From Paramacrobiotus metropolitanus (Eukaryota; Tardigrada; Eutardigrada; Parachela; Macrobiotidae), in the NCBI RefSeq assembly GCF_019649055.1, contig NW_026570248.1, forward strand, positions 1 through 64,000: 64,000 bases of DNA. The letters are read 5' to 3'. Positions 11,867 through 61,364 of the stretch are shown one piece after another. Both the position numbers and the translations under genes were made by a program. The notes under the pieces are model-generated. The model saw only the letters and a list, made by a program, of their open reading frames with translations, did not search any database and had not been told where the DNA came from. The first letter of the stretch is position 1; every line of letters starts with the position of its first letter.

Positions 11867-13028
11867 AAAATACGGGTAATATATGAGCATGCGAGAACGA
11901 TTTAATTTTAAATAGTCATTAAATCTAGTACTAGTCAAAATGCAAGATTATCAATTAATCGTGCAGAGCCTTTCCAGTACCACGAAATATATTGAAACAT
12001 GGATAACTACAGCCCTATTTTGTTCAAGATTGCTTGCCAGTTTATTGGTCCAACGATTTTTTTCGTCATAATTACTGAAGTATTTACGTTGCTGCGACAT
12101 TTACGTTGCTAAATAAAAATAACTGTTTCGCGCGACGTACAATACTTTTATATAATATGCAGAGTATCGAAGGGATTAATCTGTGTCGTGTGAAAGCGAA
12201 ATTACCATACTTCCGTGTGAGTGTGTCAATAATGATTTCGCATCTACACGAAAAACAGCCGTTCAGACAATCATTACGTTACATTAAGCACATTCCATGA
12301 GTAATTTGGAGTACGAGTTGTAGATACGTATTGTATTTCTCGCAAAAAACTTGCTACATCACGACCTTGGTGTACAATGCTCCTCTAAAGTGACTTCCTA
12401 CTTACATTTGTTAACGAAAAGCCTTGCACGAGACTTTGAATGGTGTTGCTTTTTAGGTTAATGAATAATAGCACGCCTGCTGCTTTGAAAGTAAAACTGA
12501 TTATAGAAACGCGAAAATGATACCTGCTGAAGTCAATTTGTTCCGTTAGCGAATGACCTTATGGTAAAAAACTCATAAACAATTAGGCTAGAAGACTAAG
12601 TATGCACTATGCAACATATAAAAAAACGCAGAGTCCACGGGAATCACAACATATATAAAACAAACCGTGCAAACATAAGTTTTAGGATTTGCCACTGTGA
12701 TCGGTTGCGATTAAGGACGTAACTAAACAGTTTTACGAGGATGAGATACAAAACAGACACATTATTGCATGGCACCATTTGTTACGCATGCTTCCGGAAA
12801 AGTTCTCACGCTTTGTTTTTATGGAACCTGTGTTGCAGACCAAACGCCGCATTGTGCTAAACTTGTTTCAGTGTTCGGATCCCTTTAGGCGTTCGCTTGA
12901 TACAGCCTTATATGCACTGCATACAACTACGTAATGTTTTCCCCGTCGCATGGCACGCACTGCTGTCGTATTGCCACCTGTTGACCTTTACAGCAAATAT
13001 TCTGTAGTTTACGAAAACAGAAATAATC
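11867..13028. other. Intergenic region, Ly6-like to lysozyme-like gene
   Basis: AT-rich, with no supported gene. It holds the 3' UTR of the Ly6-like gene (ATTAAA near 11920) and the promoter side of the lysozyme-like gene. The short ORFs at 12106-12300 and 12950-13138 lack any domain. Confidence 0.55.
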
Positions 13029-14489
13029 ATGTTTTACCGCCAAAGATGGGTAACCGCAGGGGTGCTTTTAGCAACAGTTTCTTCTTTGTTTTGGCTCGTT
13101 GGTGGACAGTCAGATCTTACTATGGAAAGTACGGGTAAATATGCCATTGAATCCGCTATTGGCAGATTGAGCCGAGCCCGGATATTTAACGATGACCACG
13201 AATTCATGAGACGTGTTGCTTGGATTGAAACGAGGGACGGTGGTGACCCGAAAACATTCCGCACTGGATATTATGGTGGAATATGGCAGGTAGAAACTAA
13301 AAACAAACTGAAAATGAAGGTTTCGAACGCTTGCCATCTTTGTATTCGATTTAGCTGCTACTTCGGTACTTGGCGCAAAGCCTGTTGCGTTTTAAAAATT
13401 CACAAACAGAGCGCATGAAAACTGCTAATAGCTACTAAATGCGGATGATACGGTATATACTTTCATAATACGGTATATTATACTTTCATAATTCATGATA
13501 CGGTATATACTTTCATAATCATATTAACCAGAGAGGTTTTTTGGTTCGTACGGAAAAATTACCATGAATTCGTACGTTCGTACGTCATTAGGAAAATGCA
13601 TCGAATGGTGTATTAACAGTCCGCGTAGCGCAGCTCTTTGCGTTTTAGAATTATTTACAGTGATAATGTTTAGGTTATCGATACCCCAGCCACAGTTTTG
13701 TGACCTTTACCTGTGCTACGATTGCTTCCACAAATATAATTACCATTCGCGATATCCTGCACTTCCACACTACATTTCCACACTATAATTAGTTGAAAAA
13801 CATGGCTTTAGTAGCACGGGACGGTTGCAGCAACGCGGCTCGCAAACCTTTGTGCGACAAGGTTGTACCGAAAGGTCGTGGCTCCGTGTTTGTTACTATA
13901 TGTAAAATTTTCAGCCTTAAACAAAGTTTGAGTTCGCAAAAAATTTTCAGTTATATATCCGACTGAGAGGTAATGGCGGTAAACTGCGTTGCAGTATTGG
14001 ACATAATTATAGTATTGTGTATGCGCGAAGCTTTATACAATACTGTAGTTGTAAACCTTGAAATACCGTACAGATAGGTGATAATTAGAATCTTGTGCAC
14101 ATGCTTTATTCTCGCCAGGTGGACGCTGACGTGTTTTTCAATACTCAAACTGACCCGGTAGCGATTTCCGTGTGGCAACCTCGAATCGCTAGCAAATTGA
14201 ACATAAGCTGGCCGGACGTTCTGTGGAAGGACCTGCGCAAGCCATTTACTCCTTGCTAGCCGCCCGACTCCAGCTTCAAATCCAAACGCAGCCCGGCGAG
14301 TGTAAGCGACCTATTCCCAATTCCCTGCCTGACCAAGCGACGTTCTACTTGCGCTGCTACCATACATCATCCTCCAACCAGATCAGCCTTTCTATGCAGA
14401 TGGGAGCAGTTCGCAATCCGAACAGTTTTATTTTGGCCATCACTGAATGTAGAAAAGCAATGTCGTGCACAAGCGGCGGACCGACATAA
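13029..14489 (+). CDS. Secreted lysozyme-like protein, one frameshift
   Basis: Two exons (13029-13289 and 14119-14489) joined at GGIWQ|VD. The first about 27 residues form a signal peptide ending near VGGQS. The body carries FMRRVAWIETRDGGDP, followed by TFRTGYYGGIWQVD and later DLRKPF...LLAARL. This order recalls a widespread, poorly named family of secreted invertebrate proteins with a lysozyme or transglycosylase-like layout, where the Glu in WIE would be the catalytic candidate. That assignment is from memory of the pattern and is an inference. The second exon is broken near 14244 by an apparent loss of one T in a T run; allowing for it, the frame stays open to the stop at 14489, giving about 210 residues. 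The intron (829 bp) holds a minisatellite. Confidence 0.65.
13443..13522. repeat. Minisatellite, about three copies
   Basis: A unit of roughly 25-30 bp containing ACGGTATATACTTTCATAAT occurs three times, the middle copy with a small change, inside the intron of the lysozyme-like gene. Confidence 0.75.
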
Positions 14490-31929: not shown

Positions 31930-33080
31930 GGTAGTTTAAAATCAAAAACCTAACCGGGTTATAATTGACGGACCCAATGGGGGAATGTGTGTTCGACCGT
32001 AAATTTTGACCCAGTACAAACGCTTAGACCGGTCCGTGTGGTGGCTTTTTTGAGAAACCGTAACGTAAATTATAACCGGGTCATTATTGACGAACCCGCC
32101 GTAGTAATATACGGGGGGTCAGGAAATTTGGACCCGGTCCGGATTTTTTTAACGGCCCCCGGTTGGTGCAGTTTTGGGGAACCGTAACGTAAATTATAAC
32201 CGGGTCATTATTGACGAACCCGCCGTAGTAATATACGGGGGGTCCGGAAATTTGGACCCGGTCCGGATTTTTTTAACGGACCCCGGTTGGTGCAGTTTTG
32301 GGGAACCGTAACGTAAATTATAACCGGGTCATTATTGACGAACCCGCCGTAGTAATATAAGGGGGGGTCCGGAAATTTGGACCCGGTCCGGATTTTTTTA
32401 ACGGCCCCCGGTTGGTGCAGTTTTGGGGAACCGTAACGTAAATTATAACCGGGTCATTATTGACGAACCCGCCGTAGTAATATAAGGGGGGGTCCGGAAA
32501 TTTGGACCCGGTCCGGATTTTTTTAACGGCCCCCGGTTGGTGCAGTTTTGAGAAACCGTAACGTAAATCATAACCGGGTCATTATTGACGAACCCGCCGT
32601 AGTAATATACGGGGGGTCCGGAAATTTAGACCCGGTCCAGATTTTTTTTGCGGCCCCGGGTGTTGCAGTTTTGGGGAACCGTAACACAAATTATAACCCG
32701 GTCATTATTGACGAACCCGCCGTAGTAATATATGGGGGGTACGGAAATTTGGACCCGGTCCGAATTTTTTTAAGTTAGGAACAGTTTTGGGGAACCGCAA
32801 CGTTAAATGTAACTAGGTCAGTATTGACGAACCCAGTAATATACGGGTGGTCGTGAAATTTGTACCCGGGAATGATTTTTTTGTGGCCCCGGGTGGTTGG
32901 CGTTTTGGTAACCGACGTTTTGGGAAATACGTATTCATTTTTCAGGGGTCCGCCGTACAATTGTATAGGTAGCCCGATTTATGAACCCTGTCCGATCATT
33001 TTGCCCGGTGTTGTTGGTGGGGTTTTTATGTTTGCAAGTCCCGTAACAGGTTACTTTTGTCGTGCAAGTTCTTGGAACCA
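31930..33080. repeat. Tandem array, unit about 124 bp, 7-8 copies
   Basis: The anchor AACCGTAACG recurs at 32056, 32180, 32304, 32429 and 32554, with diverged forms at 32677 and 32793, i.e. spacings of 124, 124, 125, 125, 123 and 116 bp. Copies 1-5 are nearly identical; the outer copies decay. Each unit carries GGGTCCGGAAATTTGGACCC, itself an inverted repeat. Changing spacing breaks any shared reading frame, so the repeated peptide-like ORFs are not thought to be coding. Confidence 0.92.
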
Positions 33081-33390: not shown

Positions 33391-33779
33391 TTGTCCCAAT
33401 GAGTTGCTGGTACTTTAATACTTGACCGTTTCGATAACAAAGCTGAGGGCGCCGCCAGGCTGCACCGCGAACAACCATTTGATTATTGCTTCAAAAGAGG
33501 GATGTAAAAATCCTAAAAAAAACTTATCTGAATTGGATTTAGAATTACTAACACCGGTATTCATCAAAGGTTAACTACGGAAATTCGCGCTCACGAAAGT
33601 TGTGAGTTATAACTTTATTTAAAGAGGTACGCTTAAAAAGCGCACATTCGAAAATTTGTAAATTTTTAAGCAAAATCCAAAGGATTCTGAGGCTTTTGAG
33701 CAGTTGTTGGAAATATGTTTTAGAACGTTGCCATAGCGAAACATTTCTTAATGACGTCAGCATTAAGCAAGCGCCGCGC

Positions 33780-34440
33780 AGCATGCGGTGCAGCAAGTAA
33801 AACGGGGGATTCTATTGCCTTTGTATTCTGAAGCAATTCTTACAGTTCCGTTTGAACTTTTCGTTACCGTTTTGATACGGTAGCGGAACTGAGGGCCGAG
33901 CCGAAGGCGACGTCAAACAGCGACGCGAGCAGGCGCAGCGCAGCAAGCGGAGCAGCAAGGAAAACGATAGGATTCTATTGCTTTTTATTCTGAAAAAGTT
34001 CTTACTGTTTCGTTGGAACTTTCGCAACCGTAATGACACGGTGCCGGAAACCGAAGGCGGAGCCAAAGGCGACGCCGAGCTGCGGCGCGAGCAAGCGCAG
34101 CAAGCAAAACGAGAGGGTTCTATTGTCCTGTTATTCTCAAAAGGTTCTTCTTACAGTTCCGCTTGAACTTTTCGTTATTGTGATGATACGGTAGCGTGTC
34201 ATCATTTCTACGAAAATCGAATACGAAGTCGAGGGCGACGCAAATCTGCGCCGAAAGCAAACGCTTCGAAGCGAGCGGTGCAGCAAGTAAAACAAGAGCA
34301 TTCCATTGTCCGTTTTATTAAAAAGATAATTTTCACGGATGAACTTTCCGTTAACGTTATCATATTCGGTAACGAACTATCGTTTCGAGGAAAACCGATG
34401 GCCAAAGCCAAGCGGGTGCGCAACTGAAGCATCAAGTAGA
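33780..34440. repeat. Tandem array, unit about 150-180 bp, 5 copies
   Basis: The anchor GCAGCAAGnAAAACG followed by TTCTATTG recurs near 33790, 33952, 34097, 34280 and (degraded) 34428, spacings 162, 145, 183 and 148 bp. Each unit joins a GC-rich segment full of GCGCAGC/GCGAGC motifs to an AT-rich segment containing GAACTTTTCGTTA. Confidence 0.85.
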
Positions 34441-37410
34441 ACGAAACATTTCCTTTTTTTACTTCAAACCTTTTTCAATAGATATAACAAATATCTCAAG
34501 AAATTCTGCATTAAATTTTAGATATCAGTTTTGCAAATGAAAAACGAATTATTTGACTGCTGGATCAAAGTTTCTCGCCTTGGGATGCCACTCCCTATTT
34601 CAAACTTTAAAACAGGCTCTTTTCTGACAGTTTATATAAATCTGAAAACAAAAGAACAAAAATATAAACCTCAGCGTTTAACGTTCATGTTTCTTTGCGG
34701 GGAAAATGAAAGGAGATCAACCTCAAAGGTCTTTACAATTACATACACCACTGTTCACAGAAATTTAATCACGTGGCCTTGCCCTCACGAGCATTGCGTA
34801 TATGGGATAAGGTTCAACGTAGTAAGTAAAGTGGTGAAATTTCCTGATTTTGAAACGAATTTCAACAAAATTTTTAATTTTTAAAGTCTTTGGGGAAATT
34901 GTTGTAGACATTTTTTGAGGATAATCACGCGCTCCATGAACTTTATTGTAAACCGAAGATTCTGGTAAGCTTAGTCAAATCAATACCCAAACACTAAAAC
35001 TTTTTCGCTCCAGGTCAAGTTGAGTTAGTACGCTGAGACCAAAAACGACCGTGGATTACTAGCCATAGTCATATGCGGGAAACGGGCACTTGATGTTCAA
35101 AACCATGGTAAGTATGAGTTACTCGACCGTTGTTTTGCTTCAGAATAAAATCAACCAAATAAAACTGAAAACCATAGAAAAACATGGTACCCTTTACCCA
35201 AGAAAGTCATCCATTTAGTAACCGCTACTGCTTTATTGTTACCTACGTTGCCGCTGCCAACAGACATCAAATAAGGTGTTGAACCGATAAATTGTTTGCG
35301 CAATAAATAAGCCTAACCAGGCTTTACGAAAACATTAAACTCTAAAAGAGAAATGTGTGCCGGCGCTCCTCGGATCTTGTGTGGTTAAATCGGCATACGC
35401 GATTTGTATAAATCAGTGTGTTAATTTATCTGTAAAAAGACAATCTGTCCATGAATTTGAAAATACTGGGATTTAAATGGCTAAAACTTTTATGCGTCTA
35501 ACAACTAACTGAAAAAGTTAAAACAAAGAGTTTTTTAGGTTGTTAACTACCGGCGGAGAATCATTAATTCAGTTCAGAAATAGAAGGCGAGAAGTTGCGG
35601 AATAGTGACTGCATAGTCAGATATTTGCGATAAAACGGGCTTTTCTGCCAATAAATGATACGATGCGGCAGCTTTCCAGGTAAGCAATGCCATCGAGTTC
35701 TGGCCAACTGCCAATCTTGCGAAAACTTAAAGATCTGAAGCGGAACTTATTTTCTGCTTTTCCATGGACCACCAGCACGAAAAGTAATATTTCTAAGTTT
35801 TTAATTTAACACCAAAAATTGGTTTGATAGACCGTTACGAACTGTTAAAATATTTTGCAGAGAATCACTGATTTACGGTTAGTAAACGACTGCGGTGCAG
35901 CGTGAATGGCAAATCAAGGTTGCCAGAAGTTTAGTGACGTGGACCATGTTTTAGTACAGCCGTCTGGTTAGTGAATTGAGCTGCCAAACCATTTTGCATA
36001 TTTCGCTCTTGATTGCGGTTGCGTTGGGAAATCTCTTCAATTAGCATGTTATGTTTTGTTTTTTTCTCTGCAAGCGGTAAGTTTGGAAATTCAACCTGTG
36101 CGAACGATTGTACTTGACGGGTAATGGCCTGGGTTGCGATTCTTGAACAGGCTCTCAGTCTTCTGATCCAATATAAGCGTAAAAGTTGAACGTACCCATT
36201 AAATCGGCTCTGTTGGCGATTTGCATAAAGGTCTTTACAAATTTAAAGCAACGACCAGTATCCTAAAATAAAGAATCTGGTGCGAAATGGACGGCTATCT
36301 GCGATAGGGTATTTATATTAGTAGTGCCCGCGTCGCAGTGGCTGGCGTTGACACTTCTGATCGTGTGGCAGTCCTCCTGTGTGACCCGCTAGGTCGTTAT
36401 TATCATTTAGATCAGCATTATCATCTGTATTACGGAATGAGATGTCGCGTGCGGGAGTACGGAGAGACCTAGACAGACTGGTGGATAGCGGTAAACTCAT
36501 GCCAGTCAATCACGCCGACTGTCGAGTCACAATCGGCTCTACAATGGAGAGCGTAACCGCAAAAAATATTTTTTGGCCAACACACAAATCTGAAATGCCT
36601 TTGGCTTGGTTAGCTCAAGCGTCTCAACCTCCCCCCTCCTGCGTAGTGCCAAAAAAATTTAAATTTTTAATTTTTGGAATTAAGTTTAACGTGAAAAGTT
36701 AATTAGAAGAAATTTGCGCGTTATAAAAATACATCTTTTATCTTTTTACACGCAATTTTCAGATAACCAGAAACCATTTCATCTTACGAAATTCGGAATT
36801 TAGTTTCTTGGAAAGCATGCACCAGTACGAAGCTCAAAGAATATTATACTTTTTTTAAGGGAATCAAAAATAAAAAAAAAATTTAAAAATAACATATTGT
36901 ATTGGCATAATTCCGCAAACGGCATAAAAATAATGATATCATATCGGCATCTTAGCGGCGGCAAAAACTGATATCTGAGCAGCTCTGGTGATATGCCTTC
37001 CACAGCATATGCAACAGCTACAAAAAACGAGTAGACTCAACTACTTCTGTTCCAGTGACGCAGTCTTACCCAACCGAGTCTTTTACAACAAGAAAAATTT
37101 ACACGCTCGCTCGCTTGCACTAAGGGCGGTTACGACCTTTATACTAGTATATTTTGTTATTATAAATAAGCATCAAATTTATAGTGAGTGCGAAGATGCG
37201 GGGAGTACCGTACATACGCACGTACATCTTATACAAACTACAGGTGCTACGGTTTATCAGTCGTGCCATCTCATCCACCATCAAAACCCGTGATCGGTCA
37301 TTTCTGCTCATTGGCATGCTGCTTCAGCTTCAAAATTTCATTCAGTAGACACATCAATCTCTACATCCCTCAATTATCGCTACCCCGGAAATATTTTTAC
37401 GGTGACCAAG

Positions 37411-38525
37411 ATGTATTTCGCGTGGTGTGTTGCCCTTTTCTTCGTTTCGACTGGCTTTGAGCACATCGTTCCTGGAGTTTATTCTAGAGAAGTATTTACA
37501 AACTAACCTGTTGCTTATGGAACGTTTTCTACAACGGATCAGTGATTCGTACAATGCATAATTACCGTTGCTATTTTGTCCCAACAGGTAGATATCTTTT
37601 TTAACGAAGGAAACGTTCACCAGCCTGGCTGTTGCCATCACCAGCTGAACGACGATGAGTTGCTGACAGAAGAATTGCTGCGAAAGGATGAATTTTCCTC
37701 CCCGGAGCAGCGGATTCGCCGCGAATTGCTGCGCCAGTCCGACGAAATTTCCTCCCCGGATGCGTGTCTGCTGAGTGAGCTGAGACGCAGAGGTGCCAAC
37801 GACCTTTCCTCTTCTGACCTGCGCAGCCATCGCGACATTTTGCGCAAGAATGACCTTTCCTTGGCTGAACTGCGCCTGTTACAGCGTGAACTGCGCAGAG
37901 AAGCTGCCGACCTTTCCACCGTGAATATGCGTACCAAATTGGAGAAACTATGTCCCTTGTTGGATGTTTCGTCGCCGTCGGATCTGCGCGATGTGAAAGG
38001 TACGATTAATTAAAACAGTTTTGGTTCTTAGTAGTTCACAGACTTCGTAAATGTATGATCCCATTGTTGTAATAATTTTGTAAATTTTCTTGATTTTCTC
38101 GTGTCAATGTTGTCTTTTCATATTGTGGCAGCAATGTCGTACAATGTTTTCTCGTATTACAGTGCTGGGACGTAGTCAGACTACTGTGATCAAACGACAA
38201 GGTACGCTGTTAACTTTGACCAGATTTTTTCAGAATTTTGTTTTCCTTTACGTATACGTCAGAATGTTTAGGTGACAGATCGTAACGACAAGTATTTCTT
38301 GTTGCAGTCGAAGAAGAAGACGCAGAAGAAGAAGAGGAGACAGAGCAACCCAAGAAGTCACAGAAGAAGTCTCTGAATAAGTCGCAAAAGAAGTCTCAAA
38401 AGAAGCAGTCGCAGAAAAAGCAGAAAGCGGAAGCTAAGAAGAAGCCTGCTAAATCCAGCAAGTCGTCCAAGAGTAAAGGAAAATCCTCAGCGAAGAAAGG
38501 GAAGAAAGACAAGAAACAACGATAA
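37411..38525 (+). CDS. Unrecognised secreted Leu/Arg-repeat protein with lysine-rich tail
   Basis: Function unknown. Four exons (37411-37491, 37588-37999, 38163-38201, 38308-38525) give 249 residues with phases that all close. The first exon encodes a signal peptide (hydrophobic MYFAWCVALFFVSTG). Exon 2 holds about five imperfect 17-19 residue repeats beginning near residue 48, each with L-L/R-R, an acidic residue, SS or LS and a following R/L-rich stretch, for example LLRKDEFSSPEQRIRRE and LLRQSDEISSPDACLLSE. The pattern suggests alternating charged helices. An acidic EEEDAEEEEE block follows, then about 55 residues made almost only of Lys, Ser, Gln and Ala, ending KKDKKQR. A basic tail behind a signal peptide is odd; it could bind polyanions outside the cell. 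Whether the signal peptide is used is not shown. Confidence 0.72.
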
Positions 38526-41231
38526 GCCTATAGTCCTTGGTCTCGTGCTGTGATAATTTTATTCGGCTAGTTGGCCAGTACACAATGACAATATGCCTGC
38601 GCAGATTTACACTAATTAAAATTTTTTAAAACTGTTTTTGATTATTCTGGTTTTCTTTGCACGCGTTTATGCGGATGCTGGCGCAGTATTTGTGATGCCT
38701 GATGGTTTAATGCTGTTTCGGTGATATTTTTCCTGAATTTTCGGTTGAGTTGTATCTATCGAATAAAGTCATAAACCGAGCGTTCAAGTTTTACTTGTGC
38801 CGTATGTACTACGTTGCCGACTTAACCTTCAGTCTTATGTATCCAGTACTTATCATTGTCTGACGTTCAGGTTTCAGTAAACATGTAAGTGCACGAGCGA
38901 CTGAACAAATAGGTTGCATTTCAGTTTTTTAATCAGAATTATCATCTGCAAAATTTCGATATTCTTTATTCTTAGTAGAAGTATTGGTACTTGGGGCTAC
39001 CACTATAATTTCAACCCGGGCACATGCCAACAAAAATTTAAATATTCATTTCAATATTTAGAGAGTAGCCAAGTCACAAAAAAATGAAATAAGTGTTTGC
39101 TCTGCTACCGATAAAACTAGAACTAAGATTGATTTCTAAATGGTCCATTGGTATCAGACTATCAGGAGTCAACTTCAAGAGTAAATAAGTCCTGCTAAAA
39201 TGACTTTTGTTGTAATGCTGATTTTTGTCATTTATAACCTTAATCGGTTTTGCAATACAAAATGAGTAAATTATAATATGAGCTACTAAATAATATGAAA
39301 CAATAATTAAAAATATGAAATCAACGATCGGTAATTCAGAATTGTATGGTATTTGCGTTTTCGTATCGACAGACAGCCGTAGCCTCCCAATTTTTGTATA
39401 CTTCTACCATTTTTTTATAATGTAGTGTGATATGTCAGTAGTAGTACTGTAGCTGCATAACAACATTGTAACACTCATGACGTAATAACAATCCACATTC
39501 TGCTTTGTAGAGAACTGAGAGAAGTCTTTGCGTGTAAATTGTGGACGCGGTGACGATAGATCATCGAGATTTCATTAATGAATTTGCATGCATTTTCCCA
39601 ACGCTTAAAGTACCTATTTTCGGTGTATACAATAGCGATTTTAGAAATAACAGCAAGCACGAATTTCCCGGCTGCGATAATAGGTGTAACAGTTACTGAC
39701 AGTGAGTACGAGTATACGTACAAAGCACAATCGTCTCAGTATGCCTTTATGTGCCCAAAACGGCAAAATCGTAAGTACCCTTAAATTACGGTAACATACC
39801 TCATAACAACAAAACCGAAAGTTGCCTAAAAAAGCTGCAGACGACTGCATCGGTCATCGCGATGTACGCTCTGTACAGAGCCATAGATAAACATATGACC
39901 TTATGGTAGGTTTGGCTAGCGGTTTTCAATTACAGTACTTCCACATTTGATCGTTAATACTCGTATTATGGCAGCTATCCGTTATTCACTTGCAGTCGCC
40001 AGTCAGTACGCCCGAAGAAATACCCATCGTCGTTCTTTAGATTGACACAAAGAGATCCACGTGACCAGTCTCTGGGTCTCGCGCGGTTAGAATACCTGCG
40101 AAGTGGTTCTGTTAAAAATAAATTGTTTTGCCGTAAGCCAGTAGGCCGACACCACAAAAGAACAATTTCTTCTGAATGGCCATGTTGAACTGTAACGGTA
40201 GTCGCGCGCAATATAAGCCCAAAGTGAGATGGATCTGTGCCGGGACAGTGATCATGACCCTAGGGATATATCAGCAGATAAATCAGTAGCCGGGAATTAG
40301 TGTTCCTTGTTCTGGGTCTGTGATAGGGAGTTACACTACACCGACGATACGATTGACGTCATCTGCTTGTGATGGTTCCAGTATTACATCTTAACGGTAT
40401 TTCCTACGCATAAGATTTGCACTCCACTGTCTCCCAGTGTATTGTGATGCAAATAAATCTACGCAAGCCTTATATGCTTATTTATTGTTGTGTTTTTCCT
40501 GAATGCCCGTGCAATCATAGTTAAATACTCCGAGCAGCATTTGTGCCGCGCTGCTTCCTGGATTGTGATGATTTGTTGCTCACAGTTGCTGCATCGTATT
40601 TTTGTATCCGTATATGACTCCCACGCCGCAAATAACACCCGGCGATGTTTCATCGTTTAGCACTTCCGGTCGGGGCGCATGTTTATTGTTTTCTTTAGAA
40701 ATTGCTGGTAATTCTCTCTCATAACGCATAAACGCCAATATTGCTCTGTGCAGCGCGCAGCATGAATTAAGCTAGCTCCTGATCATTGATACGTATGCTT
40801 ATCCCTGTCATTTCGTGCGTATGTTTTCAGCGAAGCGCTCTTTTGGTTTTGTCAATATTGCTCAGCATACTTGGGAACATAGAGACACTCAGCCGCATAT
40901 TTGGATGCAACACAAGACTTCATTTCCCTAAAAACATTCCGCTGGATCAGATTTTCATCTGCCCGCATGGACGCATCTGAAACATGTTGTATGCTGGATG
41001 TGCACAGTCTGCGGACCTGTCACTAATCGTGGCCTTTGAGTTGTGCGCAGCTGTACAATTGTTATCAACCGTTGTATTAGCTGTCATATAGATGTGTCGC
41101 TGGATTGCCAAAAACCCGGAGTCTATCGAATTTTTTTGTCAGTCGGCACACGGATTATCCGCACTTCATCCGAGCAGTGTTTTAGAAAATTTCAAACATA
41201 ATCAGTCACCGTAAACCACGCGTGCTGTATT
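38526..41231. other. Intergenic region upstream of the GPCR gene
   Basis: No gene supported. AT-rich sequence with ORFs below 85 codons. A minus ORF at 40459-40653 has a CxxC...HxCC spacing but no other zinc-finger feature and is not called. Confidence 0.55.
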
Positions 41232-56089: not shown

Positions 56090-57293
56090 TCCTGTCGTGC
56101 ACGTGCTTATCAAGCGTTTGTGCACTCTACTTTCAAATAAAAAACCGGAAGGTGAATAGAACGTTAATGAATAGTCTAAAATGTAAAGCATAAAATTAAA
56201 AATCGTAAGTAATCACCTGACAAGGATGATGAATGATGAGTTCGCTATCGTAATAACAAGGTGCTGTATTTATACGAGTACGTTTGTAAACAAACTCAGA
56301 AGTCTGACTTATGTACTGTTATAGTGTTATTACTTATTACTCTAGTACTGTACTTATTGGAACACAGAGGGGTGGGGAGATAAAACGAGAGATTTCGAAA
56401 TTTTTTAAATGCGTTTTAAAATACAGATATTGCGTCATGTAGTTGCCGGAGAATAGGTTGTTTTTTTATAAAACTGAAAATGTGACGAACTGTACAGCCG
56501 GCACATTTTGCCACATGGTTGACCTGTAATACTTTACATGTTTTTTATTTTGTTCATCGCAATGAAGTGTAGAACAGATAAATTTTTCCTTTCGTCCCTC
56601 CGTCACACCGTAAGATGGTCCGTAACATCAGATTCGAACAGATATGCACGGACATGTATTATCAATACCTACCCTATATGTTGGCTAGAAATTTACGAAA
56701 ATTGATTACCTATTTACGATAAAGTGTGCAAAACCTTACAGAAGATTGTTCTTATAACGAACAAAAAGTTATGATTTGTAAGTGGTGATTTATAAAACTA
56801 CAACCAGTACTAGAGTAGCACTTATGTACCTCCGTAATTTGTTGTACGACGTTTAACATGTATGTACTTAAACATGAAGCACACCTAGTTACTTACCGTA
56901 AAATTACTTAATAATCAAGTATTGTAAGTATTTACGGGCTGCATAGTTAATAGTTAGATTTCAATGGTGCTAATAAAATTTAATAATCGTTACTTGTAAA
57001 CTAGTTTCTATAAACAGATGCTACAAGTAAATGATTTAGCTTGCAGACAAATGTTACAAACAAATGCTAACTACAAAAACAAACGTTTTAAACAAATGGT
57101 TTTGGTTTCCAAACAAATGTTACAGATTTCAAACAAATCGCTACTTGCCAGTTGCCACCCTTTAATTTTCAAGAACCATCGATATCATATTGATATATGC
57201 GCTAATGCGTGATATGATAGAAGCACTAATAATTATTTATAGTTCATACAAAAGTAAATCGACAAAAACCCCTTACCTATCTACATCTCCGGA
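56090..57293. other. Region between divergent methyltransferase and orphan gene
   Basis: AT-rich; both promoters should be here. Near 57045-57145 AAACAAATG-like words recur five times, the complement of the motif at 48410-48500. No gene supported. Confidence 0.5.
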
Positions 57294-58562
57294 ATGAATG
57301 TTGCACTGCTGGCACCGTCGTATAACTCGGTTCACGGGAATGTGTTGGAAAATATTAAACAACAGATCACTCGACGTCTGGTGGAAAAGCAAGCATCTCC
57401 ACTCGAATCTGGAAAGGTCATAGTCTTAGATCAGTCCTTCTGGAGTCAGCGTCTCTCTCCACCCGCAATAATAAGAAAGTTATTTCGTGCTAATGTGACG
57501 GGCATTTTTATTCTAATTCGCTACGGGCAGTCTGTGAGAATGCGCGTACAGTTAGACGAAGTTGTGAGCAATTTGTTCTCTGTGGATCAGGGTCTGCCAT
57601 TATTGCCTATCTGTGTTTTCTTTTATGGATCCAGACCAGTTTCCCGTCGTGAAAAATTAAGAATTCAAGCCATGTTCAAAACACATTTAGCTGAACAAGT
57701 CGACATACCCCCTGTTTTATTTGCACAGCGTTTACTCCAACTGCGTCACTGCTATTCAGAATTCCTAAGAGAAGACAAAATCGCTGACATTATGAAATGG
57801 ATGAAAAGTCAGATGAAGCTATGTGCAACATTCAGTTGGCGATCATACGCTGCCAGTTATCATGCTGCTGAAAGCTCCACGCAACTACATGAAGCTGGTG
57901 ATGCAAATGCAGTACTGCGGAACTTGGTTCCCACGAGGTCACGGCGGAGATCTCTATCAGAACCCAAAATTGTCCCAAATCTGAGGGGTTATATTGTTCT
58001 TGTGTGCGAAGAAGCTCGACGGGTGCCGAGTAACAGTTTCAGTATGTCCATTAGAAAAGTGGCCTTGCGACAATTGCTAAATGGTGATAAACACTGGACC
58101 GACAACTGCCAAGAGTTCAAGACAGCTGAGCGTATTCATGGAATATTTTCCATTTTAACGGCGAGCCGAGATAAAGCGTATGGTGTACTGAGCTCCAGAG
58201 TAACAGCTCTAAAAGCGCAACATGGGCACACGTTTCGACCACGGAAGCATGAATTATTCTTAACTAATTTCAGCTGGAGTGTACAGTGCTGGAATAACAG
58301 AACAAGTCATGCTGTGATGCGGTGTGCAATTGGCTTTTTAGGACACACGGAAGTATTTGGATTTGCAAACTGGCTGAACGCCCAAGAACTCCGATTACTG
58401 CGATCCCATATATTAGAATACTATGCAAATTTTGACAAGCGTACGATCGAGAATCGGTCTGAGAAACTGTCTCCTGCAGAAACCCTTGCTCGCGCCAGCT
58501 TGCATCGATCTCATAGTATTCATGATTTTCGAAGTTTTATGCAGCGAGAAATTCTGGACTAA
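57294..58562 (+). CDS. Orphan intronless protein, 422 residues
   Basis: Not recognised. One uninterrupted frame from ATG to stop, far longer than chance for this composition. No signal peptide and no clear membrane segment. The N-terminal third alternates beta-like and helical stretches (KVIVLDQSFW, ITGIFILIRYG-like NVTGIFILIRYG, LPLLPICVFFYGS), which could be an alpha/beta fold, but the first residues VALLAPSYNSVHGN are not a standard nucleotide-binding loop. A basic Ser/Arg stretch (PTRSRRRSLSEPK) sits mid-protein, resembling a kinase or nuclear-localisation site. The C-terminal third is helix-rich. It may be a retrocopy, a transferred gene or a lineage-specific protein. Confidence 0.7.
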   Translation: MNVALLAPSYNSVHGNVLENIKQQITRRLVEKQASPLESGKVIVLDQSFWSQRLSPPAIIRKLFRANVTGIFILIRYGQSVRMRVQLDEVVSNLFSVDQGLPLLPICVFFYGSRPVSRREKLRIQAMFKTHLAEQVDIPPVLFAQRLLQLRHCYSEFLREDKIADIMKWMKSQMKLCATFSWRSYAASYHAAESSTQLHEAGDANAVLRNLVPTRSRRRSLSEPKIVPNLRGYIVLVCEEARRVPSNSFSMSIRKVALRQLLNGDKHWTDNCQEFKTAERIHGIFSILTASRDKAYGVLSSRVTALKAQHGHTFRPRKHELFLTNFSWSVQCWNNRTSHAVMRCAIGFLGHTEVFGFANWLNAQELRLLRSHILEYYANFDKRTIENRSEKLSPAETLARASLHRSHSIHDFRSFMQREILD

Positions 58563-59902: not shown

Positions 59903-61364
59903 ATGTCTTCGGTGTTCATCATAGTTTTTTCCACAGTCTTCCTGTCGTCGGTCACCTTTGCCGACACTATGGTAAAGTCTGAGATGGATAGGTGGCATCA
60001 GTAGTGACTAAGATCTGTAATATCATCAGCCAGCAATGCCAAAATGTTCGAATGTTTTATTTTAAGTGCTCTGTACAATAAAGAAGCATTTGAAATACAT
60101 TTATTTTTATTGACAGATGAAGCGGCAATCCGGTTACGGTCAAGCAGGGTCGGGCGGTGGCCTTTCTGGATTCCCCGCAGGATCAAGCGGTATAGTTGGT
60201 ACGCAGATTCTACCAATGCAGTCTTTATTGTCCACTTGCAACCTCCCCATTGCAGGCTATCCTAGCTCGTCTAGCAGTGGCATGAGTTCATACCCCGGTT
60301 TGGTGTCCGGTTCTTCCGGCAGCAGTGGTGGCGGCAGTTATTCCAATTCCGGAACAGCCAGTGGCTTTGCGGCAGCCGGCAGTTCGTCCTTTAATCTGTA
60401 TGGCGGTAACAGCATTATTGCCGCGCAAAATCCAAATGTTTACGCTGCGCTGGACCAGCTGCGAGGATCCGAAGCATTGACAGCATCTGAAGCAACCGCC
60501 GTCATTGCGAATTCCATTCCCGGCACATCCTACCCGACTCTAGCTCATATTCCACAAACCAGCTTCTCCTGCTCCAACGTCCGTCAGTTTGGATTTTATG
60601 GTAAGTAATCATACTGGCGCTTAATAATTTCGCTCTGCCATAACAATGCGTTCGCTGGCTTGGTACCTGAAATACTCTTAATTCTAGCTGATCCCGAGAC
60701 TAGATGCCAAGTGTTTCGCCGATGCGAAGCGAATAACTATATGTTTTCCTACATCTGCCCCAACGGAACACTTTTTAACCAAATCACTCTGATCTGCGAC
60801 TGGTGGTACAACGTTAACTGCCCAAAGTAAGTATTAAAACGTTGTATGCCCGTCACTGAGCCGCATGTTATGCAGATGACCAATATGTTTGACCTTTTGC
60901 CTATTAAATATACCGAAAAGTATTATTAACAGCAATATCTTTATAGCTCCGCTGCCTGGGTTGATTACTCCAATCCCCGCATTTATCGTCAAGATCTGCG
61001 CCTGTTCGACGATTTGTACGGTGCCGGTTCGGGAATGGGTGGAGGCAGTTACAGCGGTAGCGGCGCCGGAAGCTACAGTGGCGGAGCCGGCGGAAGCAGC
61101 GGTAGCACATACGGAGGCAGCTTGGGCGGCTTAGGCGGAGGCAGTGGATCATTCGGCTCAGGCGGCTACAGTCAGGGCGGCTCGTCTCCCATGCAACAGT
61201 ACCGCAGCGCTAGCCTGGCCAACAAAGTCCTCTCCGAACCCATTGCGTCGGCATCCGAGAAAACCCTCAGAGAAATTCTCACACAACTGGCCACGAATTC
61301 CCTGCAGTTACCTGACGCCGTGGTCACTTCAGAAAGAGACAATGTCACTACAAAATTTGTGTGA
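59903..61364 (+). CDS. Secreted Gly/Ser-rich protein with a chitin-binding type 2 domain
   Basis: Probable cuticle or extracellular-matrix protein of 369 residues from four exons (59903-59971, 60117-60600, 60688-60826, 60947-61364). The start is set at 59903 because it yields a signal peptide (FIIVFSTVFLSSVTFA); the frame is open further upstream. Gly/Ser/Tyr-rich sequence follows, then FSCSNVRQFGFYADPETRC, QVFRRCEANNYMFSYIC, GTLFNQITLICDWWYNVNC, a complete six-cysteine CBM14 (peritrophin-A) domain at about residues 175-235. After a short NSAAWVDYSNPRIYRQD segment, common in arthropod proteins of this kind, comes a GGGSYSGSG-type low-complexity block and a non-repetitive C-terminus. The AATAAA at 61556 lies 192 bp past the stop. 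Confidence 0.92.

What the first reader, a model, noticed from the sequence alone, without database searches (positions are those of the whole stretch)
37411..38525. Novel secreted Leu/Arg-repeat protein with polylysine-like tail
A signal peptide, about five 18-residue amphipathic repeats, an acidic patch and a roughly 55-residue Lys/Ser/Gln tail in one 249-residue protein match no family I know. The basic tail could bind heparan sulfate, nucleic acid or mineral outside cells. If the organism is a tardigrade, such disordered charged proteins are of interest for stress tolerance.
Basis: partly seen in the sequence, partly recalled or inferred. Interest (0 to 1): 0.7.

Follow-up and report, generated by a model that had tools for sequence, protein, structure and literature searches.

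The report
Orphan helical-repeat protein with lysine tail
An animal gene of four small exons appears to encode a 249-residue, possibly secreted protein made of six short repeated units and a lysine-rich tail; it matched nothing searched here, but its start is uncertain and its function is a guess.

Summary
The gene is probably real. Four exons at 37411-38525 (+) join in frame to 249 residues. The repeat exon has the codon usage of other window ORFs in the claimed frame, above 400 of 400 background windows. The repeats exceed chance: six units of 17-19 residues, not five, scoring 119 against a maximum of 17 in 100 shuffles. An acidic patch and a 60-residue Lys/Ser/Gln tail follow in frame. Two claims are weak: the signal-peptide exon joins by a poor acceptor and 53 of 717 control ATGs start as hydrophobically; amphipathicity is not significant (571 of 5000 shuffles). 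No relative appeared in Pfam, PHROGs, PDB, prokaryotic genomes, viral contigs or plasmids, but no animal genome collection was available, so novelty is untested. Best reading (0.4): a lineage-restricted secreted polyelectrolyte whose basic tail sticks to an anionic matrix. Main rival: a nuclear protein with a misassigned first exon. Neighbouring genes show an animal, no more; tardigrade stress tolerance has no support here.

The parts
37411..37491 (+). Exon 1: ATG and 27 codons, putative signal peptide (YFAWCVALFFVSTGF core; possible cleavage after GVYS by the -3,-1 rule, recalled)
   Evidence: codon score negative in all six frames, -0.211 in its own; donor GTATTT in the top 8% of GTs
37492..37587 (+). 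Intron 1 (96 nt); weak acceptor TTTTGTCCCAACAG; alternative in-frame acceptors end at 37623 and 37644
   Evidence: holds in-frame stops
37588..37999 (+). Exon 2: spacer with GCC and HH, then all the repeats
   Evidence: codon score best of six frames and above 400 of 400 background windows
37648..37974 (+). Six tandem units of 17-19 residues (residues 48-156), each ending D-(E)-[FILV]-S-[STL]; partial seventh unit 37975-37998
   Evidence: 119 vs shuffle maximum 17 of 100; one helix in each of units 2-6 and the partial seventh, none in unit 1, in low-confidence AF2 models
38000..38162 (+). Intron 2; donor in the top 0.3% of GTs (1.7% with the smaller training set), acceptor in the top 21% of AGs
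38163..38201 (+). Exon 3: 39 nt, LGRSQTTVIKRQ linker; symmetric phase, so skipping keeps frame
38202..38307 (+). Intron 3; donor in the top 0.2% of GTs, acceptor in the top 0.4% of AGs (0.5% and 2.2% with the smaller set)
38308..38342 (+). Acidic patch VEEEDAEEEEET (residues 178-189), net charge -9
38343..38525 (+). Lys/Ser/Gln tail, residues 190-249, 26 K, 12 S, 8 Q, net charge +24, then TAA; the DNA holds a 12-bp tandem of 4.5 copies
   Evidence: synonymous codon score best of six frames
38762..38767 (+). AATAAA, possible polyadenylation signal (ATTAAA also at 38615)
   Evidence: word match only
37342..37346 (+). TCAGT initiator-like word upstream of the ATG (also at 37257; TATAAA at 37161)
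   Evidence: word match only

Best explanation
A lineage-restricted secreted protein that works as a polyelectrolyte adhesive. The signal peptide sends it out of the cell. A run of short repeated units, probably helices (predicted for units 2-6 and the partial seventh, at low confidence), forms a flexible helical rod or loose bundle that makes contacts between molecules. The acidic patch screens the tail or pairs with tails of other copies. The disordered Lys/Ser/Gln tail binds anionic material outside the cell, such as sulfated glycan, acidic protein of cuticle or eggshell, or nucleic acid, and may help the protein condense or be cross-linked at K and Q. Shown: an in-frame gene model, coding frame of the repeat exon, repeats, charges. 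Inferred: secretion, disorder of the tail, binding, role.
For: In-frame four-exon model; coding statistics; repeats; tail +24 and patch -9; the highest combined splice score among the starts enumerated belongs to the hydrophobic one, by a small margin (5.21 against 4.90). Precedents for the parts: the basic tail of the tick salivary protein Salp14 governs its anticoagulant effect, and acetylation of its lysines impairs it (PMC8294578, abstract and passages); 48% of products secreted during the moult of the C. elegans pharyngeal cuticle are predicted disordered, with families whose sequences favour phase separation (PMC9629831, abstract and passages).
Against: Weak first-exon acceptor; rival starts close behind, and for acceptors 37591 and 37609 only ATG 37009 was listed. 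53 of 717 control starts are as hydrophobic. Exon 1 has a negative codon score. Amphipathicity not significant. No fold match with E below 2.2. No relative, hence no evidence of conservation. The tail would fit a nuclear protein equally well.
Confidence: 0.4

Rival explanations
1. A nuclear or nucleolar protein: the first exon is misassigned, and the acidic patch and the Lys/Ser tail, which resembles histone H1 or nucleolar tails (recalled), serve nuclear import and DNA or RNA binding, with the repeats as an interaction module.
For: Tail composition and acidic patch; weak intron 1 acceptor, with upstream ATGs 37009 and 37196 able to join in frame at nearly the same score; starts as hydrophobic as this arise at 53 of 717 control ATGs.
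Against: The best-scoring start listed is the signal-peptide-like one, narrowly. No Pfam family passes its cut-off; the weak GAGA_bind match (E 0.045, 14.4 bits, cut-off 26.6; residues 142-245) lies mostly in the patch and tail.
Confidence: 0.28
2. A multi-copy peptide precursor: the repeats are cut at basic pairs (LRK, LRRR, LRK, LRR) into related peptides of about 15 residues.
For: Basic pairs at the same place in 4 of 6 units (1, 3, 4, 5), and IKR before the acidic patch (and sequence); signal-peptide-like start.
Against: 6 basic pairs against a shuffle mean of 3.5 +/- 1.5 is only mildly high; unit 2 has its pair elsewhere and unit 6 has none; no Gly for amidation before a site; a 60-residue basic tail is unusual for such precursors (recalled).
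Confidence: 0.1
3. A young or decaying gene of no settled function, or a chance reading: a G+C-rich repeat exon beside simple A/G-rich sequence.
For: No relatives found; tail DNA is an array of 12-bp and 15-bp units that can slip; ORF length alone is not significant; exon 1 and exon 4 have negative full codon scores.
Against: Exon 2 codon usage above 400 of 400 background windows, and synonymous choice best in the claimed frame for exons 2 and 4; codon position 3 varies most among repeats (0.69 against 0.60 and 0.54, untested for significance); the repeat and tail exons join in frame by strong donors.
Confidence: 0.12

Closest known systems
Tick basic-tail secretory proteins (BTSP, Salp14, BSAP1)
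   Same: Secreted, with a C-terminal lysine-rich tail that in Salp14 carries activity
   Different: The canonical BTSP domain has six cysteines; here four cysteines follow the signal peptide, and there are repeated units instead
C. elegans pharyngeal cuticle disordered families (IDPA, IDPB, IDPC, APPG)
   Same: Secreted, low-complexity proteins
   Different: No sequence comparison was made; the word 'lysine' does not occur in that paper's main text
Tardigrade SAHS proteins
   Same: Secreted proteins studied for drying tolerance
   Different: SAHS have a fatty-acid-binding-protein-like beta-barrel; no such match here
Tardigrade TDR1
   Same: Small basic proteins, 146-291 residues, 20.5% K or R in that of H. 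exemplaris

Membership tests
Tick basic-tail secretory proteins | Canonical six-cysteine domain | tested here: not met
   Four cysteines lie after the signal peptide in the sequence; definition
Tick basic-tail secretory proteins | Lysine-rich C-terminal tail (usual, but may be acidic or absent) | tested here: met
   26 K in 60 residues
SAHS (tardigrade) | FABP-like beta-barrel sequence | tested here: not met
   No lipid-binding family among Pfam matches to E 10 (filters drop most matches above 0.1); residues 1-177 gave 4 PDB matches to E 10, none SAHS; only helices predicted, at low confidence
TDR1 (tardigrade) | Conserved C-terminal domain with basic positions | not testable with these tools
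Any Pfam family | Score above the curated cut-off | tested here: not met
   8 weak matches for the whole protein, best E 0.045, all below cut-off; 1 without the acidic patch and tail, E 0.049, below cut-off
Multi-copy peptide precursors | Basic cleavage site between the copies | tested here: not met
   At the same place in 4 of 6 units only (and sequence)
Secreted proteins | Cleavable signal peptide | tested here: inconclusive
   Hydrophobic core present; 53 of 717 control starts as hydrophobic; no signal-peptide predictor among the tools

The most novel reading that the evidence does not exclude
The founder of an undescribed family of secreted capped-helix repeat proteins whose acidic patch and polylysine tail drive condensation on an anionic or mineral matrix of an animal.
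Probability: 0.1. Interest if true: 0.55.

Novelty: new member of a known kind. Interest (0 to 1): 0.27.

Why it matters
Animal genomes hold many lineage-restricted secreted proteins of charged, low-complexity sequence, and their roles in cuticle, eggshell and glands are poorly known (recalled, in part). If this one is secreted and conserved, it pairs a clean repeat with a polybasic tail and would be a simple test case for how such parts build matrices. As it stands it is one more orphan gene with a plausible but untested role.

Tried and rejected
Antisense coding: the minus-strand ORF at 37354-37878 is long and by eye also looks repetitive, but over that stretch its frame scores -0.006 against 0.062 for the plus frame, and it has no Pfam match. 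ORF length as evidence: dropped, because long ORFs are expected here. Fold comparison: 68 PDB matches, lowest E 2.2, from a model with mean pLDDT 53.6, so not used. Paralogues elsewhere in the window: tblastn to E 10 gave nothing convincing; apart from the gene's own region the best E was 1.1. Relatives of exon 2: 458 pattern stretches in genome contigs and 38 in viral contigs, none confirmed by tblastn at E 1e-3; none in plasmids at E 0.1; 2 weak PHROGs, best E 0.2. The phage and E. coli collections were not searched. [quoted passage not shown] a search for tardigrade neuropeptide precursors listed 4 and one for tardigrade secreted proteins listed 12 of 4,399; no title there pointed to this protein. 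All cover open-licence PMC papers only. Amphipathicity as a defining trait: not significant.

Full report
Observation. The sequence at 37411-38525 yields a four-exon reading that joins in frame to 249 residues and a stop: 37411-37491, 37588-37999, 38163-38201, 38308-38525. The exons have 43-53% G+C, the introns 31-38%. Intron 1 holds in-frame stops.

Is it coding? A stop-free run of 155 codons is not evidence: 2.65 such runs arise per 64 kb in 40 simulations under an order-2 Markov model. Codon usage is evidence. A model from 2451 codons of ten window ORFs gave exon 2, in the claimed frame, 0.126 per codon. The other five frames gave at most 0.031, and 400 randomly placed, overlapping background windows, each scored by its best of six frames, gave at most 0.065. 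The model is modest: left out one at a time, 8 of 10 training ORFs scored uniquely best in their own frame, one tied and one missed. With amino-acid content removed, exon 2 (0.086) and exon 4 (0.126) are again best in the claimed frame. Exon 1 is negative in all six frames, -0.211 in its own. Exon 4 is negative in all six on the full score, as its composition is odd, and its frame leads there only narrowly (-0.388 against -0.394) (all).

The repeats. Six full units (residues 48-65, 66-83, 84-102, 103-119, 120-138, 139-156) and a partial seventh are all in exon 2. The best ungapped arrangement scores 119; 100 shuffles of the same region, each given the same freedom of spacing, average -62 with standard deviation 27 and maximum 17. 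Differences between units fall most on codon position 3 (0.69) and least on position 2 (0.54), as expected if the protein is what is kept, though this was not tested for significance. Of 40 lags tested, 17, 36 and 37 stand out (1, 4 and 3 of 2000 shuffles reach them, uncorrected). All six units end in D-(E)-[FILV]-S-[STL], and 4 of the 6 starts of units 2-7 read S-x-x-E/D, which is a helix-capping box (recalled). AlphaFold2 from the single sequence places one short helix in each of units 2-6 and in the partial seventh, and none in unit 1, in both jobs, at mean pLDDT 49.8 and 53.6, so the arrangement in space is unknown. Foldseek gave no match below E 2.2. The word 'amphipathic' is not secured: the mean moment of the six units is reached by 571 of 5000 shuffles.

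The other parts. Residues 178-189 carry net charge -9; residues 190-249 carry +24, with 26 K, 12 S and 8 Q. Their DNA contains 12-bp and 15-bp tandem arrays, so the tail could have grown by slippage. The donors of introns 2 and 3 lie in the top 0.3% and 0.2% of all GTs, and the acceptor of intron 3 in the top 0.4% of AGs; the acceptor of intron 2 is middling, top 21% (the smaller training set gave 1.7%, 0.5%, 2.2% and 18.3%). The repeat exon and the tail exon are therefore probably one gene. Exon 3 is 39 nt and symmetric, so it could be skipped without loss of frame.

The weak point. Exon 1 joins exon 2 by a donor in the top 8% and an acceptor at -2.8, while the 20 acceptors read by eye from two neighbouring genes score 4.8 to 12.0. 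Acceptors at 37623 and 37644 also keep frame and score -1.5 and 0.3, still low. Among the 15 best starts listed, ATG 37411 leads for acceptors 37587, 37623 and 37644, but by little (5.21 against 4.90 for ATG 37196 and 4.50 for ATG 37009 at acceptor 37644); for acceptors 37591 and 37609 only ATG 37009 is listed. The hydrophobic stretch is no great rarity: 53 of 717 ATG readings open for 27 codons have an 11-mer at least as hydrophobic. Secretion is plausible but unproven.

Surroundings. Filamin, frizzled (two ORFs), exostosin/GT64, ionotropic glutamate receptor, an ATP-grasp domain (as in succinyl-CoA ligase, recalled) and a methyltransferase were matched by Pfam, in 7 of ten ORFs scanned. An acyl-CoA-oxidase-like gene at about 28.0-31.5 kb and a seven-helix receptor-like gene at about 41.2-45.2 kb, both +, were read by eye and not scanned. 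The organism is an animal with compact genes; its phylum is not established.

Relatives. None: Pfam best E 0.045 below cut-off, PDB sequences best E 0.38 (residues 1-177), genome contigs and viral contigs none confirmed, PHROGs best E 0.2, plasmids none; searches used exon 2 alone. Pfam and PDB do hold animal proteins, but the DNA collections are prokaryotic, viral and plasmid, so absence says little about novelty.

Mechanism. The best reading, at 0.4, is a secreted polyelectrolyte with a sticky basic tail. A secreted lysine tail that matters to activity exists (Salp14: PMC8294578, abstract and passages), and C. elegans secretes many predicted disordered proteins into its pharyngeal cuticle (PMC9629831, abstract and passages). 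A nuclear protein with a wrong first exon stands at 0.28, a peptide precursor at 0.1, a young or decaying gene at 0.12. Membership in tick basic-tail proteins and SAHS fails on a defining feature; TDR1 could not be compared.

Verdict. It is an orphan gene of moderate curiosity. The stress-tolerance idea has no support here.

Noticed in passing
32048-32773: Tandem array of a 125-bp unit, 5.8 copies, 94% matches, between the acyl-CoA-oxidase-like gene and the gene studied.
   Followed up: no
33766-34101: A 162-bp unit in 2.1 copies, 80% matches, with AGCAAGCGCAGC-like words.
   Followed up: no
57258-58562: Stop-to-stop open frame of 434 codons with no Pfam match at E 0.001.
   Followed up: partly
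60114-61364: Two Gly/Ser-rich open frames, possibly another low-complexity protein.
   Followed up: no
13008-13418: Open frame whose MFYRQRW start looks like a signal peptide, followed by FMRRVAWIETRDGGDPKTFRTGYYGGIWQVE; no Pfam match to the 129 residues given; the motif recalls an unnamed invertebrate family (recalled).
   Followed up: partly
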